NCBI GenBank assembly: GCA_027618565.1
Contig: JAQCEQ010000007.1
Span: forward strand, 1 to 64,000
DNA from: Planctomycetota bacterium
GTDB taxonomy: Bacteria; Planctomycetota; Phycisphaerae; Phycisphaerales; SM1A02
Length of the DNA: 64,000 nucleotides
Direction of reading: 5' to 3'
In this document: positions 8,686-39,596 of the stretch, piece by piece
How positions within the stretch are numbered: position 1 is the stretch's first letter
How the letters are laid out: every line of letters begins with the position of its first letter
The notes under the pieces: model-generated
Seen by the model: only the letters and a program-made list of their open reading frames with translations
The model's database searches: none
What the model was told of the DNA's origin: nothing
Made by a program: the position numbers and the translations under genes

Positions 8686-9618
8686 GTGAGTTCGCCACCG
8701 CAAGAAGCCGTGCTCGTGACGGGAGCGTCCGGGCTTATGGGCCGATCACTGTGCGCGCGATTGGAGCAGGCGGGCGCGTTGGTCATCCGCGCGACGCGTG
8801 ATCCTCGCCAAGGCGCCCAGGCCGGCGTTGCTCGGTGGGATGTGGCCACGGGCGCGTTGGAAGTGTTCGGACCAATGCCGCAGGTCGTCATTCACCTGGC
8901 AGGTGAGTCCCTGGCGTCAGGTCGATGGTCCAGGCGCCGCAAGGAACGGATCTGGAAGAGCCGAGTGGACGCGACGCGAGCGCTCTGCGAGTGGTCCGCG
9001 CGGTGTGAGCAGCGTCCGCGGCTTTTCCTGCACGCCTCTGGCGTTGGCTTCTACGGGAATCGACCCGATGGACTCTGCGATGAGGGTGAGCCGCAGGGAG
9101 GCGGGTTTCTCGCAGAGTTGGCAGGAGCCTGGGAGGTGGCCACGGAGCCACTGCGCAATGCCGGAGTGCGGACGATCTCGATCAGGCTTGGCATGGTGCT
9201 CTCCCGAGACGGCGGGGCGCTGTCGTCGATGCTGCCGGCGTTTCGGTGGGGGCTTGGGGGGCGGGTTGGAACTGGACGCCAGGGAGTGTCGTGGATCACC
9301 TGCCGCGATGCCTGTCGTGCGATCCAATTCCTGATGGACCCCGGAGCCCCGATCGTGGACGGGGCCGTCAATGTGGTCTCGCCGCAACCGGTGTCTCAGA
9401 GGGAGTTCGCCCAGGCGCTCGGACGAGCGCTTCACCGACCCGCCATCCTCCCAGCGCCCGCGTGTGTGCTTCGATTGGTGTTGGGGGAGATGGCGAACGA
9501 GCTGTTGCTCTCGGGGCAATGTGCTGTTCCAACCAAGCTGGAGGGACTCGGATTTCGATTCCTCGACGGCGAACTCTCTGGCGCGCTCACGAGCGTGATT
9601 GCAGGCGACGCCAACTGA
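8686..9618 (+). CDS. TIGR01777 family NAD(P)-dependent epimerase
   Basis: A 310-residue extended SDR of the YfcH/SDR39U1 type. It begins with the nucleotide-binding VLVTGASGLMGRSL, then shows VIHLAGESLASGRWSRRRKERIWKSR (given in part), SGVGFYGNR as the serine/tyrosine active-site segment, and ISIRLGMVLSRDGGALSSMLPAFRWGLGGRVGTG, typical of the family. The substrate is not known for any well-studied member. The start is GTG. The gene converges with the MFS gene and overlaps it by 32 bp. Confidence 0.85.
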   Translation: MSSPPQEAVLVTGASGLMGRSLCARLEQAGALVIRATRDPRQGAQAGVARWDVATGALEVFGPMPQVVIHLAGESLASGRWSRRRKERIWKSRVDATRALCEWSARCEQRPRLFLHASGVGFYGNRPDGLCDEGEPQGGGFLAELAGAWEVATEPLRNAGVRTISIRLGMVLSRDGGALSSMLPAFRWGLGGRVGTGRQGVSWITCRDACRAIQFLMDPGAPIVDGAVNVVSPQPVSQREFAQALGRALHRPAILPAPACVLRLVLGEMANELLLSGQCAVPTKLEGLGFRFLDGELSGALTSVIAGDAN

Positions 9619-36093: not shown

Positions 36094-36484
36094 CCACGCG
36101 GTGAGGTGACCGCCCCCAGGGCAACCTGGGCGAGGAAAGTCCGAACACGACAGGACACGGTTGTGGCTAACGGCCACCAGCCTCTGACGCGAGGCTCGGG
36201 ACAGTGCCACAGAGAAGAGACCGCCGAACTCCGCGCCTCGGTGCGGGGTGGCAAGGGTGAAACGGTGCGGTAAGAGCGCACCGCCCTCCTGGTGACAGGA
36301 GGGGCACGGCAAACCCAACCGCGTGCAAGCGCAAGCAGCTCCGCCAGCCTCGGCTGGCACCTGTGGTCCGCAGGTTGGAGCGGGTCGCGTGCTTTGAGCC
36401 TCCCGGCAACGAGAGGCCAGAGAGAAATGGTCGCCAGGCCTCCCTTCGGGGAGGTCGACAGAATTCGGCTTACGGCCGCGCGCG
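36094..36484 (+). ncRNA. rnpB: RNase P RNA (bacterial class A)
   Basis: The two conserved blocks of bacterial RNase P RNA are present: GAGGAAAGTCCGAACA near the 5' end (36131-36146) and ACAGAATTCGGCTTAC near the 3' end (36458-36473). Between them lie GTGCCACAGAGAAGAGACCGCC-type P4/P8 sequence, GGGTGAAACGGTGCGGTAAGAGCGCACC and GGCAAACCCAACC, all typical of the class A core. P3 is very short, a CCCAGG-GCAA-CCTGGG hairpin. The ends are approximate: CGCGG at 36097 can pair with CCGCG at 36476 as P1. It is the catalytic RNA that trims tRNA 5' ends. Confidence 0.95.
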
Positions 36485-36497
36485 TCAGTTTCAGCGG

Positions 36498-36677: not shown

Positions 36678-37232
36678 ATGAGCAACGCACGACTCAACAG
36701 CCTGCAGACCTACACCATGCTCCTCTACCGGAAGGCCTTTCACCCAGAATTCTTCGCGATCGAGGGTCGCCGGAGCGAGTCTCAAGGCGGGGCCGAGGCG
36801 GAAGGCTGGATCTTCAAGGGCGGGCACTGCGTCCGATTCCAGGTGGGCGACCTGGTGTTGTGCGAAGTCCTCACCGACGAACCGTCCCTCCTCCCGGAGC
36901 GTGCCCTCAATGTCCAGCTGCCGTGCGCCGGCGAGCGTGACCATGACGAGCGCATGGGCACGGGACACCACTTCTACACCACGATGCAGACGGAGACTCT
37001 GAGCGAGCACCTCTACCTGGGTGAGTACAAGGAGCTGCTTGCACGGGCAAGAGCAGCGCAGTCTCTCCTGAGCGTCTGGAAGGACGAGCAGGATCGACCC
37101 AACCTCTCCGTGGTGGAGATGAGCCGATCGACCGCCGGCGTCAATGTGGAGGCCTGGCACCTCCGATCGGATTGCGGCCTGGTGCTCCGGTCATCGTCGA
37201 TGGTCTGCATCAAGGGACGCGCCGGGGCGTGA
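36678..37232 (+). CDS. Conserved hypothetical protein, possibly DUF2617
   Basis: A 184-residue soluble protein without signal or membrane segment. I think it matches the DUF2617 family of planctomycetes, from TYTMLLYRKAFHPEFFAIEGRR at the start, HCVRFQVGDLVLCEVLTD in the middle and HLRSDCGLVLRSSSMVC at the end, but I cannot confirm this from sequence alone. No catalytic motif is visible. A clear promoter and GAGGAA ribosome-binding site precede it. Its stop overlaps the GTG start of the uracil-DNA glycosylase gene (GTGA), so the two are probably one transcription unit. Confidence 0.75.
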   Translation: MSNARLNSLQTYTMLLYRKAFHPEFFAIEGRRSESQGGAEAEGWIFKGGHCVRFQVGDLVLCEVLTDEPSLLPERALNVQLPCAGERDHDERMGTGHHFYTTMQTETLSEHLYLGEYKELLARARAAQSLLSVWKDEQDRPNLSVVEMSRSTAGVNVEAWHLRSDCGLVLRSSSMVCIKGRAGA

Positions 37233-37981
37233 GCCGCGCGCGCGTGCTGGAGATGGACCGGGCGTTCGGGGTGCGAACCGGCAGTCCGGTTCGTGTGGTT
37301 CGCGAGTCGATGCCCTCGCCGGTCGGGGCACCTGGTACTCCCGATGTTCATGCATCGCTGTGTGCGATCATCGGCGCCGCCGGTTCCGCGTCGGAGCGGC
37401 TCGGGGCGCTTGAAGAGTGGCACGCGGCACACTGCCCGCATTGCCTGGCCGCGACGGCGCACACACGCCTCGTCTTTGGAGAGGGGGATCCCCAGGCCGA
37501 GCTGATGTTCATCGGCGAGGCGCCCGGCGAGACGGAGGACTCCACGGGCCGACCGTTCGTGGGGCGCGCGGGCCAGAAGCTGGACGAGATGATCAAGGCC
37601 ATGGGACTCGCTCGCGAGCGGGTGTACATCGCCAATGTGCTCAAGTCTCGGCCGCCCGACAACCGGACTCCGCTCCCAGTCGAGGTGGAGCGCTGCGGCC
37701 CGACACTCGCCGCGCAGATCGCCATCATCCGGCCCTTGTGCCTGGTGACCCTGGGCGGACCAGCGGCAAAGCTCATCCTCCAGACCGACATCGGCATCAC
37801 CCGGCTGCGTGGACAGTGGGGCAAGTGGCAGGCGCCCGATTGGCTCCCCGGGTTGGAAGCGGTGCCAGTCATGCCAACCTTTCACCCCGCCTACCTCCTC
37901 CGGAACTACACCCCCAAGACACGGGGCGAGGTGTGGTCCGACCTCAAGCAGGTTATAGGACGGTTGGGTGTGCGAGAGTAG
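37229..37981 (+). CDS. Type-4 (iron-sulfur) uracil-DNA glycosylase
   Basis: A 250-residue protein. After about 70 residues of extension come the family-4 hallmarks: a CPHC pair before the first strand, the active-site GEAPGETEDSTGRPFVGRAGQKLD, a third Cys in EVERCGPTL and a fourth in RPLCLVTLGG, giving four Cys for a 4Fe-4S cluster, and the late FHPAYLLRN. It removes uracil from DNA to start base-excision repair. The GTG start overlaps the previous stop codon; the N-terminal extension is longer than in Thermus-type enzymes and could mean a later start. Confidence 0.92.
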   Translation: MSRARVLEMDRAFGVRTGSPVRVVRESMPSPVGAPGTPDVHASLCAIIGAAGSASERLGALEEWHAAHCPHCLAATAHTRLVFGEGDPQAELMFIGEAPGETEDSTGRPFVGRAGQKLDEMIKAMGLARERVYIANVLKSRPPDNRTPLPVEVERCGPTLAAQIAIIRPLCLVTLGGPAAKLILQTDIGITRLRGQWGKWQAPDWLPGLEAVPVMPTFHPAYLLRNYTPKTRGEVWSDLKQVIGRLGVRE

Positions 37982-38064
37982 GACCGCCGGCCCCCGTCAG
38001 AATCGTCGGAACCCAAGGATAGTTTGGAGAAAAGGAACCGATCACGCCACGCGTGCGGATTGTG

Positions 38065-38178
38065 TCGTGGAGGGAAGGGAAATGGTGCGAAGGTCGTCGG
38101 GACCGACTTTTGCAAGCGGCGCTGGAAACGTGGGACTTGCGCCGCCACCTTTGGCTGCACTCCACAGCCCCCCCACGA
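38065..38178 (+). ncRNA. Candidate structured small RNA (unidentified)
   Basis: A closed, multi-hairpin fold can be drawn by eye. Outer stem TCGTGG (38065) with CCACGA (38173). Inner stem AAATGGTG (38080) with CACCTTT (38146). Inside it are hairpin A, 9-11 bp (CGAAGGTCG / CGACTTTTG, 7-base loop), and hairpin B, 7 bp perfect (GCGGCGC / GCGCCGC). After the inner stem comes hairpin C (GGCTG / CAGCC). An ideal terminator follows one base later. It has no open frame with homology, and the next gene downstream is on the opposite strand, so it is not a leader. It does not match RNase P, SRP RNA, tmRNA or a cobalamin riboswitch; 6S RNA is not excluded. Confidence 0.55.
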
Positions 38179-38179
38179 G

Positions 38180-38221
38180 GAGCCTGTCGCGCCTTTAAGG
38201 CTGCGGCGGGCTCTTTTTTTT
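38180..38221 (+). terminator. Strong rho-independent terminator
   Basis: GAGCCTGTCGC pairs with GCGGCGGGCTC (11 bp with two G-U pairs), with an inner GCCT/AGGC extension, and is followed by eight T. It ends the candidate small RNA and possibly read-through from the uracil-DNA glycosylase operon. Confidence 0.92.
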
Positions 38222-38387: not shown

Positions 38388-39596
38388 TCAGGAGGTCAGC
38401 AAGGCGACCGCCGCGCTGGAGACCAACGTCGTCCTCTGCTCGTCGATGGACGCCCGGTACTGGAGCAACTCAGCGCGGCAGCCCATTGCGGCGCGCGCCG
38501 CCCACATGGTGCCGACGCTGCACCATCGGGTTGGGTTTCGGTTCTCCGCCATCTCTGCGAGGAACTCGTCCGGCGCCTGGTCACAGAAGGTGCTCAGCAT
38601 CGCGCGATCGTGCGCCTCCACCTGTCCGGCGCGCTCTTCATCGACGCCCGCCTGGTCCCCGAAGGGCACTCCGACATGGGAGAGGTCCGCGCTCGCCACC
38701 ACATAGTTCGTGCCTGCGGCGCTGGCGATCGCTGCCCTGAGCCCCTCGACGAACTCGCGCGTGGCGACGCGGGCGCCAGAGTCGTCGATCATGGCCCGAT
38801 TGGGGTCCGGGAGAAGGGCCGCCACGACCCGAGCCGAGGGAAAGAGGTGCTTGACCCAGACGGTGTGGAGCTGGATCGAGTGCTCCGCCACAAGGTCAAT
38901 CTCGTCCTTGAACAAGCGGTCGCCGAAGGTGGCATCCAGCGCGGCGAGCACGCCTTGGTCGGGTTCCACTCGACCCAGAGGCGTGTCGAAGCCATGGCGC
39001 GTCATCGTCACGCCGTCGCCCAAGCCGAAGTGGTTGGTGCCCAGGATGACGACGCGATCCGGTGCGGCGAGTCCCTCGAACGCCTTGTAGGCGGCGGCAT
39101 AATTGTCGCCACCGCGTGTGCGGTCGAGGTGCGGAGCAACCAGCCCAATGACCGAGGCACCAAGTTCCGGGTCGTCCGCACTGGAAAGCAAGCCCTGCAT
39201 CGTGGCGCGTGCCTCGTCTTGGGTCGCACCAAACGCCGCGGCTGCCCCGACGGGCATGGCACCCGCGGCGGACACCTTGGCCATCGTCTCACGCTCCAGG
39301 CGCTCCATGGTGGGACCCCACATCAGGCCCGCCTCATCCAGCTGCGAGACCAGATTGGTGAGCACCTCGAGTGGGGCCTTGGTGACTGCGGCAATCTCCT
39401 CAACCGTTCGTTCACCCTGAAACATGGTGACCAACGGCAGCATCTGCGGATGGATCCCGACGAGGGCGGCGGAGATGCCCGAGGGGTTCCGGAGTCCCGC
39501 CAGCATCTGCCCAGATTCTTTGTGCGGCACCGGGACCGTCTGGAAGGGTCTGACATGGGGGCGGAGCAGGTGATCGGGAATCGTTGTTTCGGACAT
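38388..39596 (-). CDS. AmmeMemoRadiSam system protein B (MEMO1 family) with N-terminal extension
   Basis: A 402-residue protein. Residues 1-140 are a helical extension (GERTVEEIAAVTKAPLEVLTNLVSQLDEAGL, in part, looks like a winged-helix). The MEMO domain follows: VAPHLDRTRGGDNYAAAYKAF, VVILGTNHFG, EHSIQLHTVWVKHLFP and SADLSHVG, with conserved His and Asp/Cys residues of the family's metal-site region. In bacteria and archaea the gene often sits with an AMMECR1 and a radical-SAM gene, which are not seen here. A dtd remnant follows directly, so the operon once contained dtd. Confidence 0.85.
   Translation of the reverse strand: MSETTIPDHLLRPHVRPFQTVPVPHKESGQMLAGLRNPSGISAALVGIHPQMLPLVTMFQGERTVEEIAAVTKAPLEVLTNLVSQLDEAGLMWGPTMERLERETMAKVSAAGAMPVGAAAAFGATQDEARATMQGLLSSADDPELGASVIGLVAPHLDRTRGGDNYAAAYKAFEGLAAPDRVVILGTNHFGLGDGVTMTRHGFDTPLGRVEPDQGVLAALDATFGDRLFKDEIDLVAEHSIQLHTVWVKHLFPSARVVAALLPDPNRAMIDDSGARVATREFVEGLRAAIASAAGTNYVVASADLSHVGVPFGDQAGVDEERAGQVEAHDRAMLSTFCDQAPDEFLAEMAENRNPTRWCSVGTMWAARAAMGCRAELLQYRASIDEQRTTLVSSAAVALLTS

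What the first reader, a model, noticed from the sequence alone, without database searches (positions are those of the whole stretch)
38065..38221. Unidentified structured small RNA with its own terminator
About 115 bases fold into an outer stem, an inner stem enclosing two strong hairpins (one 9-11 bp, one perfect 7 bp) and a third hairpin, followed one base later by an 11-bp terminator stem and eight T. It contains no convincing gene, is not a leader of any downstream gene, and carries none of the signature sequences of RNase P, SRP RNA, tmRNA or common riboswitches. It might be the lineage's 6S RNA or a new class.
Basis: partly seen in the sequence, partly recalled or inferred. Interest (0 to 1): 0.6.

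Follow-up and report, generated by a model that had tools for sequence, protein, structure and literature searches.

The report
Stress-type small RNA of Phycisphaerales
A short non-coding RNA gene with its own alternative-sigma-type promoter, a conserved run of C that could pair with messenger RNAs, and its own terminator is found, under no existing name, across an order of little-studied Planctomycetes, and looks like their counterpart of the stress-controlled small RNAs known from E. coli and Fusobacterium.

Summary
38065-38221 folds far better than shuffles and ends in a strong intrinsic terminator. It is a real, conserved RNA gene that matches no Rfam family and is not 6S RNA. The conserved core is smaller: a C-rich stretch, CCCCCAC(G/A)AG (38170-38179), directly followed by the terminator. 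The core occurs in 108 of 181 genomes of the family (34 of 45 genera), and diverged copies occur in neighbouring families of the order. Upstream lies a promoter of ECF-sigma type, GGAACC-N15-GCGNA (38034-38060): 41 of 84 homologues against 0.5 expected, with identical spacing in 39 of the 41. In one clade the unit is inverted between the same flanking genes, mostly with its promoter, so it is an autonomous gene and not the UTR of the neighbouring uracil-DNA glycosylase. Copies outside the family keep the C-rich motif but have a quite different, still paired, terminator stem, and some carry a second promoter type, GGAATA-N16-GGTT. Best reading: a trans-acting small RNA, induced by an alternative sigma factor, that represses mRNAs through its C-rich seed. 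It works like RybB or FoxI/FoxJ, in bacteria where no Hfq was found. Targets, cognate sigma and transcription are unproven.

The parts
38034..38060 (+). Promoter of ECF-sigma type: -35 GGAACC (38034-38039), -10 GCGGAT (38055-38060)
   Evidence: Same motif at fixed spacing upstream of homologues: 41 of 84 (expected 0.5; antisense 1, downstream 0), 39 of 41 with identical 26-nt length; located in the window
38069..38221 (+). Inferred small RNA transcript (about 153 nt)
   Evidence: Start inferred from the pyrimidine-purine step 35 nt from the start of the -35 box in the aligned promoters; end from the terminator and T-run; no RNA data
38069..38082 (+). Purine-rich 5' end GGAGGGAAGGGAAA, able to pair with the C-run (possible anti-seed); similar 5' ends in the long-form genera only
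   Evidence: MFE pairing; sequences; predicted unpaired probability of the C-run 0.28 in this RNA against a median of 0.91
38086..38114 (+). Hairpin 1, 11 bp, loop GUCGGGAC
   Evidence: Four compensatory pair changes among three genomes of the genus
38116..38145 (+). Hairpin 2, 7 bp plus 2 bp, loop GGAAACGUGGGAC
   Evidence: Kept in the three genomes, almost no variation
38153..38169 (+). Third hairpin GGCUG...CAGCC
   Evidence: MFE; still possible in the third genome by a shifted alignment
38168..38179 (+). Conserved C-rich motif CCCCCCCACGAG (putative seed)
   Evidence: Almost invariant across the family and also kept in families f2-f4 of the order
38177..38221 (+). Intrinsic terminator: stem GAGGAGCCUGUCGCGCC / GGCUGCGGCGGGCUC and eight T
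   Evidence: pairing kept with changes on both sides at 6 of 12 pairs in 76 distinct sequences, above shuffled and slid controls
37172..37981 (+). Flanking gene, uracil-DNA glycosylase superfamily (PF03167); neighbour, not part of the RNA gene
   Evidence: upstream of 70 of 84 homologues
38388..39596 (-). Flanking convergent gene, Memo-like protein (PF01875); neighbour only
   Evidence: conserved neighbourhood

Best explanation
It is a stand-alone gene for a trans-acting regulatory small RNA. An alternative sigma factor of the ECF type starts transcription at about 38069 from the GGAACC-N15-GCGGAT promoter (promoter shown by conservation; ECF type inferred from the motif; sigma not identified). 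Transcription ends at the intrinsic terminator at 38177-38221. The working part is the C-rich stretch CCCCCAC(G/A)AG just before the terminator, which would pair with G-rich stretches (consensus CU[CU]GUGGGGG or part of it) near the start of target mRNAs, blocking translation or speeding decay when the sigma factor is active (inferred). In this genus and some related ones an extra structured 5' domain with a purine-rich start can pair with the C-run and may hold it closed until a target or protein opens it (inferred from folding).
For: Conservation of the C-run plus terminator in 108 of 181 family genomes and 34 of 45 genera; all 42 hits of a two-part pattern in a scan of a collection of 84,980 species are Planctomycetota or unlabelled MAGs. 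Fixed-spacing promoter motif far above chance, absent or nearly absent from antisense and downstream controls. In one genus (locus L120 and seven others) and in L078 and L110 the unit lies inverted between the same flanking genes; seven of the eight loci of that genus still carry the strict promoter. Terminator stem covaries. Outside the family the C-rich motif is kept although the stem sequence has changed completely, GGAGCC to GGCCCGGCG, so the motif itself is selected. C-run predicted single-stranded, median 0.91 against 0.47 for the rest of the RNA body. C-stretch seeds in sigmaE-dependent sRNAs are experimentally known in Fusobacterium, which lacks Hfq and ProQ (PMC11005410).
Against: No RNA data. 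No conserved target was found: exact CTCGTGGGGG sites in eight genomes lie mostly inside coding regions with no recurring gene seen by eye. The other exact promoter matches in the window's genome are mostly intragenic and sigma genes of three genomes show no convincing copy of the motif near their starts, so regulon and sigma are unknown. Hfq was not found in 25 genomes. In the window RNA the C-run is predicted mostly paired.
Confidence: 0.66

Rival explanations
1. It is a protein-binding decoy RNA: the C-run or the repeated GGA motifs capture an RNA-binding protein such as CsrA, as CsrB/RsmZ-type RNAs do.
For: CsrA is present in 24 of 25 genomes tested. The window RNA has 6 GGA in its 5' body against 2.6 expected from composition, and other long forms have 4-8. 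Several hairpin loops carry GGGA.
Against: The short members have no GGA in their 5' body and keep only the one in the terminator stem, so a GGA decoy cannot be the shared function; the conserved C-run is not a CsrA site (own knowledge of the CsrA consensus).
Confidence: 0.14
2. It is only the (bidirectional) transcription terminator of the UDG and Memo genes, conserved for termination.
For: It lies between convergent genes in most genomes, 70 of 84 downstream of UDG.
Against: A terminator needs no invariant CCCCCAC(G/A)AG and no upstream promoter of fixed spacing. The unit lies inverted in one clade and mostly keeps its promoter. Copies occur at unrelated loci in other families.
Confidence: 0.05
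3. It is the 6S RNA of the lineage.
For: Small, structured, of unknown family; no 6S match was found in the window's own genome.
Against: No 6S match at this locus. Length varies from about 60 to 170 nt with no long bulged rod. G003 has this RNA and a separate 6S-like match elsewhere.
Confidence: 0.02
4. The transcript encodes a small protein.
For: A frame of 37 codons starts at ATG 38082 behind a purine-rich stretch.
Against: Start codon lost in the sister genome; the short homologues leave no room for an ORF before the conserved motif; changes follow base pairing in the stem.
Confidence: 0.03

Closest known systems
FoxI and FoxJ of Fusobacterium nucleatum (sigmaE-dependent sRNAs, PMC11005410)
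   Same: Alternative-sigma (ECF) promoter, C-stretch as seed, in a bacterium without Hfq, outside Proteobacteria.
   Different: No sequence relation is known (no sequence comparison was made); targets and sigma are proven there and unknown here; here the motif is a longer fixed CCCCCAC(G/A)AG next to the terminator.
RybB (Rfam RF00110) and MicA of enterobacteria
   Same: sigmaE-type GGAAC promoter, unpaired recognition stretch followed by an intrinsic terminator; the best sub-threshold Rfam hit is RybB.
   Different: 18.5 bits against a gathering score of 40; different seed; RybB depends on Hfq, not found here.
CcsR / 'cuckoo' RNAs of Alphaproteobacteria
   Same: Alternative-sigma-controlled RNAs with C-rich motifs (motif from own knowledge), sometimes in tandem (here L086, L284).
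   Different: Cuckoo RNAs follow a DUF1127 protein gene and are cut from a common RpoH transcript (PMC10253847); here the neighbours are UDG and Memo and many units have their own promoter.
6S RNA (RF00013)
   Same: Small structured non-coding RNA.
   Different: No match, no rod structure, 6S-like match elsewhere in a relative.

Membership tests
6S RNA (RF00013) | Match to the Rfam model above gathering score | tested here: not met
   No match at the locus at gathering score or at E <= 10
6S RNA (RF00013) | Long rod with central bubble | tested here: not met
   Folds of 41 to 60 homologues show a variable 5' part, a C-run unpaired in most, and a terminator
RybB (RF00110) | Match to the Rfam model above gathering score | tested here: not met
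   18.5 bits, gathering 40
RybB (RF00110) | sigmaE-type promoter GGAAC | tested here: met
   GGAACC at fixed spacing; E. coli RpoE -35 is GGAACTT (PMC8103513)
RybB (RF00110) | Hfq dependence | tested here: not met
   No Hfq by PF17209 in 25 genomes, control genomes positive
ECF-sigma-dependent C-stretch sRNAs (FoxI/FoxJ type, a functional kind) | Own alternative-sigma promoter | tested here: met
   By conserved motif only; the sigma itself is not identified
ECF-sigma-dependent C-stretch sRNAs (FoxI/FoxJ type, a functional kind) | Conserved unpaired C-stretch | tested here: met
   predicted unpaired in most members, less so in the window RNA
ECF-sigma-dependent C-stretch sRNAs (FoxI/FoxJ type, a functional kind) | Repression of mRNAs by pairing | not testable with these tools
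   Search for conserved sites gave nothing clear
Cuckoo / CcsR RNAs | Co-transcription with a DUF1127 gene | tested here: not met
   Neighbours are UDG and Memo
CsrB/RsmZ-type CsrA decoys | Several conserved GGA motifs in loops | tested here: not met
   GGA-rich only in long forms, absent from the 5' body of short forms

The most novel reading that the evidence does not exclude
An order-wide sRNA family in Hfq-less Planctomycetota in which one fixed C-rich seed is carried by several RNA genes that answer to different alternative sigma factors (GGAACC-N15-GCGNA and GGAATA-N16-GGTT), forming the non-coding arm of their stress responses, with the seed held closed by the RNA's own 5' domain in some genera.
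Probability: 0.35. Interest if true: 0.72.

Novelty: new member of a known kind. Interest (0 to 1): 0.56.

Why it matters
Almost nothing is known of regulatory small RNAs in Planctomycetota; a 2022 review counts eight sRNA families for the whole PVC group (PMC9029176). This family has a promoter motif, a seed motif and covariance models, so it can be annotated in hundreds of genomes at once. It suggests that an alternative-sigma-controlled small RNA with a C-rich seed, known from Proteobacteria and Fusobacteria, also arose in a third phylum without Hfq. The promoter motif is also a handle on one of the many uncharacterised planctomycete ECF sigma factors.

Tried and rejected
Rfam at gathering and relaxed thresholds on the window, and at gathering on seven related loci: nothing above threshold. 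A generic sigma-70 promoter scan found nothing, consistent with a non-housekeeping promoter. My first promoter pattern had the wrong spacer and missed almost all sites, corrected. Exact matches of the promoter elsewhere in the window's genome are mostly inside genes and are taken as chance. Sigma genes in three genomes: no convincing copy of the motif near their starts, so no autoregulation signal. Targets: exact complements CTCGTGGGGG in eight genomes, no recurring gene with a site near its start. Small-protein, 6S, plain-terminator and CsrA-decoy readings: see rivals. Weak matches in f6 and f5 (L283, L291, L292, L303) lack the full motif or the neighbourhood and are not claimed.

Full report
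What is there. It lies 84 nt beyond a uracil-DNA glycosylase gene (37172-37981, PF03167) and before a convergent Memo-like gene (38388-39596, PF01875). Rfam gives nothing above threshold here; the best sub-threshold hit is RybB, 18.5 bits against 40.

What is conserved. A search of relatives found the sequence in the two sister genomes along most of its length, but in other genera only the last 50 bases matched. A pattern search and alignment showed why: the conserved part is CCCCCAC(G/A)AG followed at once by the terminator stem GGAGCC(T/C)GT.... A covariance model of 24 such 3' ends (R1) finds it in 108 of 181 genomes of the family, 34 of 45 genera, but in only 12 of 298 genomes sampled across the class, all but one from the same family, and 2 of 294 across the phylum. 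A scan of 84,980 species for the motif plus terminator gave 42 stretches, all from Planctomycetota or unlabelled MAGs. In 76 distinct sequences the terminator stem has changes on both sides at 6 of 12 pairs, above shuffled and slid controls.

Its own promoter. Upstream of the homologues stands GGAAC(C/T)-N-NCGNA. It occurs in 41 of 84 distinct upstream regions against 0.5 expected from first-order Markov sequences, 1 in the antisense direction and 0 downstream. In 39 of the 41 the length is exactly 26 nt, while the bases between are random. These counts include related genomes, so they are not independent events, but they span many genera with unrelated spacers. The motif resembles ECF-sigma promoters: the -35 of E. 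coli RpoE is GGAACTT (PMC8103513). A pyrimidine-purine step 34-35 nt from its start is shared by most, which puts the start of the window RNA at about 38069. In the window the promoter is 38034-38060.

An autonomous unit. In most genomes the order is UDG, RNA, then (D-Tyr-tRNA deacylase and) Memo on the other strand. In one genus (L120, L131, L144, L155, L133, L145, L140, L117), in L078 and in L110, the RNA lies the other way round between the same genes; seven of those eight loci, all but L117, still have the strict promoter 41 nt before the aligned block. So it is a gene of its own, not the tail of UDG. G010 has two copies 134 nt apart behind one detectable promoter (L086), and G026 has two copies 234 nt apart (L284).

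Shape across the family. The 41 RNAs with a strict promoter run from about 59 to 172 nt, median 100, setting aside the downstream copy of the G010 tandem. The shortest are about 12 nt of unpaired leader, the C-run and the terminator; many have one small 5' hairpin. The C-run is predicted unpaired in most (median probability 0.91, rest of the 5' body 0.47). In the window's genus and a few other genera there is a longer 5' domain that starts with GGAGG(G/A)A or similar and can pair with the C-run, and the predicted probability that the run is free falls to 0.28-0.69. Its covariation cannot be judged well: among three genomes of the genus hairpin 1 has four compensatory changes, while the inner and outer stems are partly broken in the third genome.

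Beyond the family. A broader model (R2) finds weaker matches in neighbouring families of the order. Of those fetched, 23 have the motif CCCCCAC(G/A)AG intact next to a terminator, in nearly all of quite different sequence, such as GGCC(C/T)GGCG...CGCCGGGC. Many lie downstream of UDG as in the window, so they are probably orthologues. Others lie at other loci (downstream of a polyprenyl synthetase-like gene in family f4, by eye). Seven of the 23, none next to UDG, carry instead GGAATA-N16-GGTT at fixed spacing, against 0.013 expected. This looks like a second alternative-sigma promoter class driving RNAs with the same C-rich motif. L296, L297 and L300 carry the motif twice, each before a hairpin. 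The persistence of the motif through a complete change of stem is the best evidence that it is the working part.

What it most likely does. Shown by comparative evidence: an autonomous RNA gene, a conserved non-housekeeping promoter, a conserved C-rich motif, a conserved terminator, no conserved ORF. Inferred: that the promoter is read by an ECF sigma (the window's genome has 11 matches to sigma-70 region 2, cognate unknown), and that the C-rich motif is a seed for pairing with mRNAs. The closest working parallel is FoxI/FoxJ of Fusobacterium, sigmaE-dependent sRNAs with C-stretch seeds in a bacterium without Hfq or ProQ that repress envelope proteins (PMC11005410). Hfq was not found in 25 relatives tested; CsrA is common. 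My search for conserved targets failed, which lowers confidence in the mechanism but not in the gene.

Not 6S. 6S-like matches exist in several relatives at other loci, including G003, which also has this RNA.

Verdict.

Noticed in passing
window 36094-36487 (+): Bacterial RNase P RNA class A (232 bits) about 1.7 kb upstream, overlapped by spurious ORFs on both strands.
   Followed up: no
L279, L281, L285, L289, L295 (family f4), L297, L300 (family f2), about 46-99 nt before the aligned C-run block: A second promoter-like motif GGAATA-N16-GGTT at fixed spacing before RNAs with the same C-rich motif at non-UDG loci; 7 of 23 against 0.013 expected.
   Followed up: partly
L086 2173-2362 (-), L284 hits 8758-8813 and 8992-9049 of G026 contig 85: Tandem copies of the small RNA, in G010 apparently behind one promoter.
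   Followed up: partly
L120, L131, L144, L155, L133, L145, L140, L117, L078, L110: The RNA gene lies inverted between the same flanking genes; all listed except L117, L078 and L110 also have the strict promoter.
   Followed up: yes
G003 contig 48, 20030-20193 (locus L232); also G011 and G031: Weak but plausible 6S RNA matches below the Rfam gathering score (E 1e-6 to 1e-7); Rfam's model may miss planctomycete 6S.
   Followed up: no
G000, G001, G002, G003: These small genomes have only one, diverged CsrA match (about 50 bits), where most relatives have two including one strong match of about 80 bits or more; the window's genus is among those with the long GGA-rich form of the RNA.
   Followed up: no
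L296: Repeated CAGACCCC units ahead of the C-rich motif (ACAGACCCCTCCTACACAGACCCCTACTAACACAGACCCCCACAAGG), as if the seed had been multiplied.
   Followed up: no
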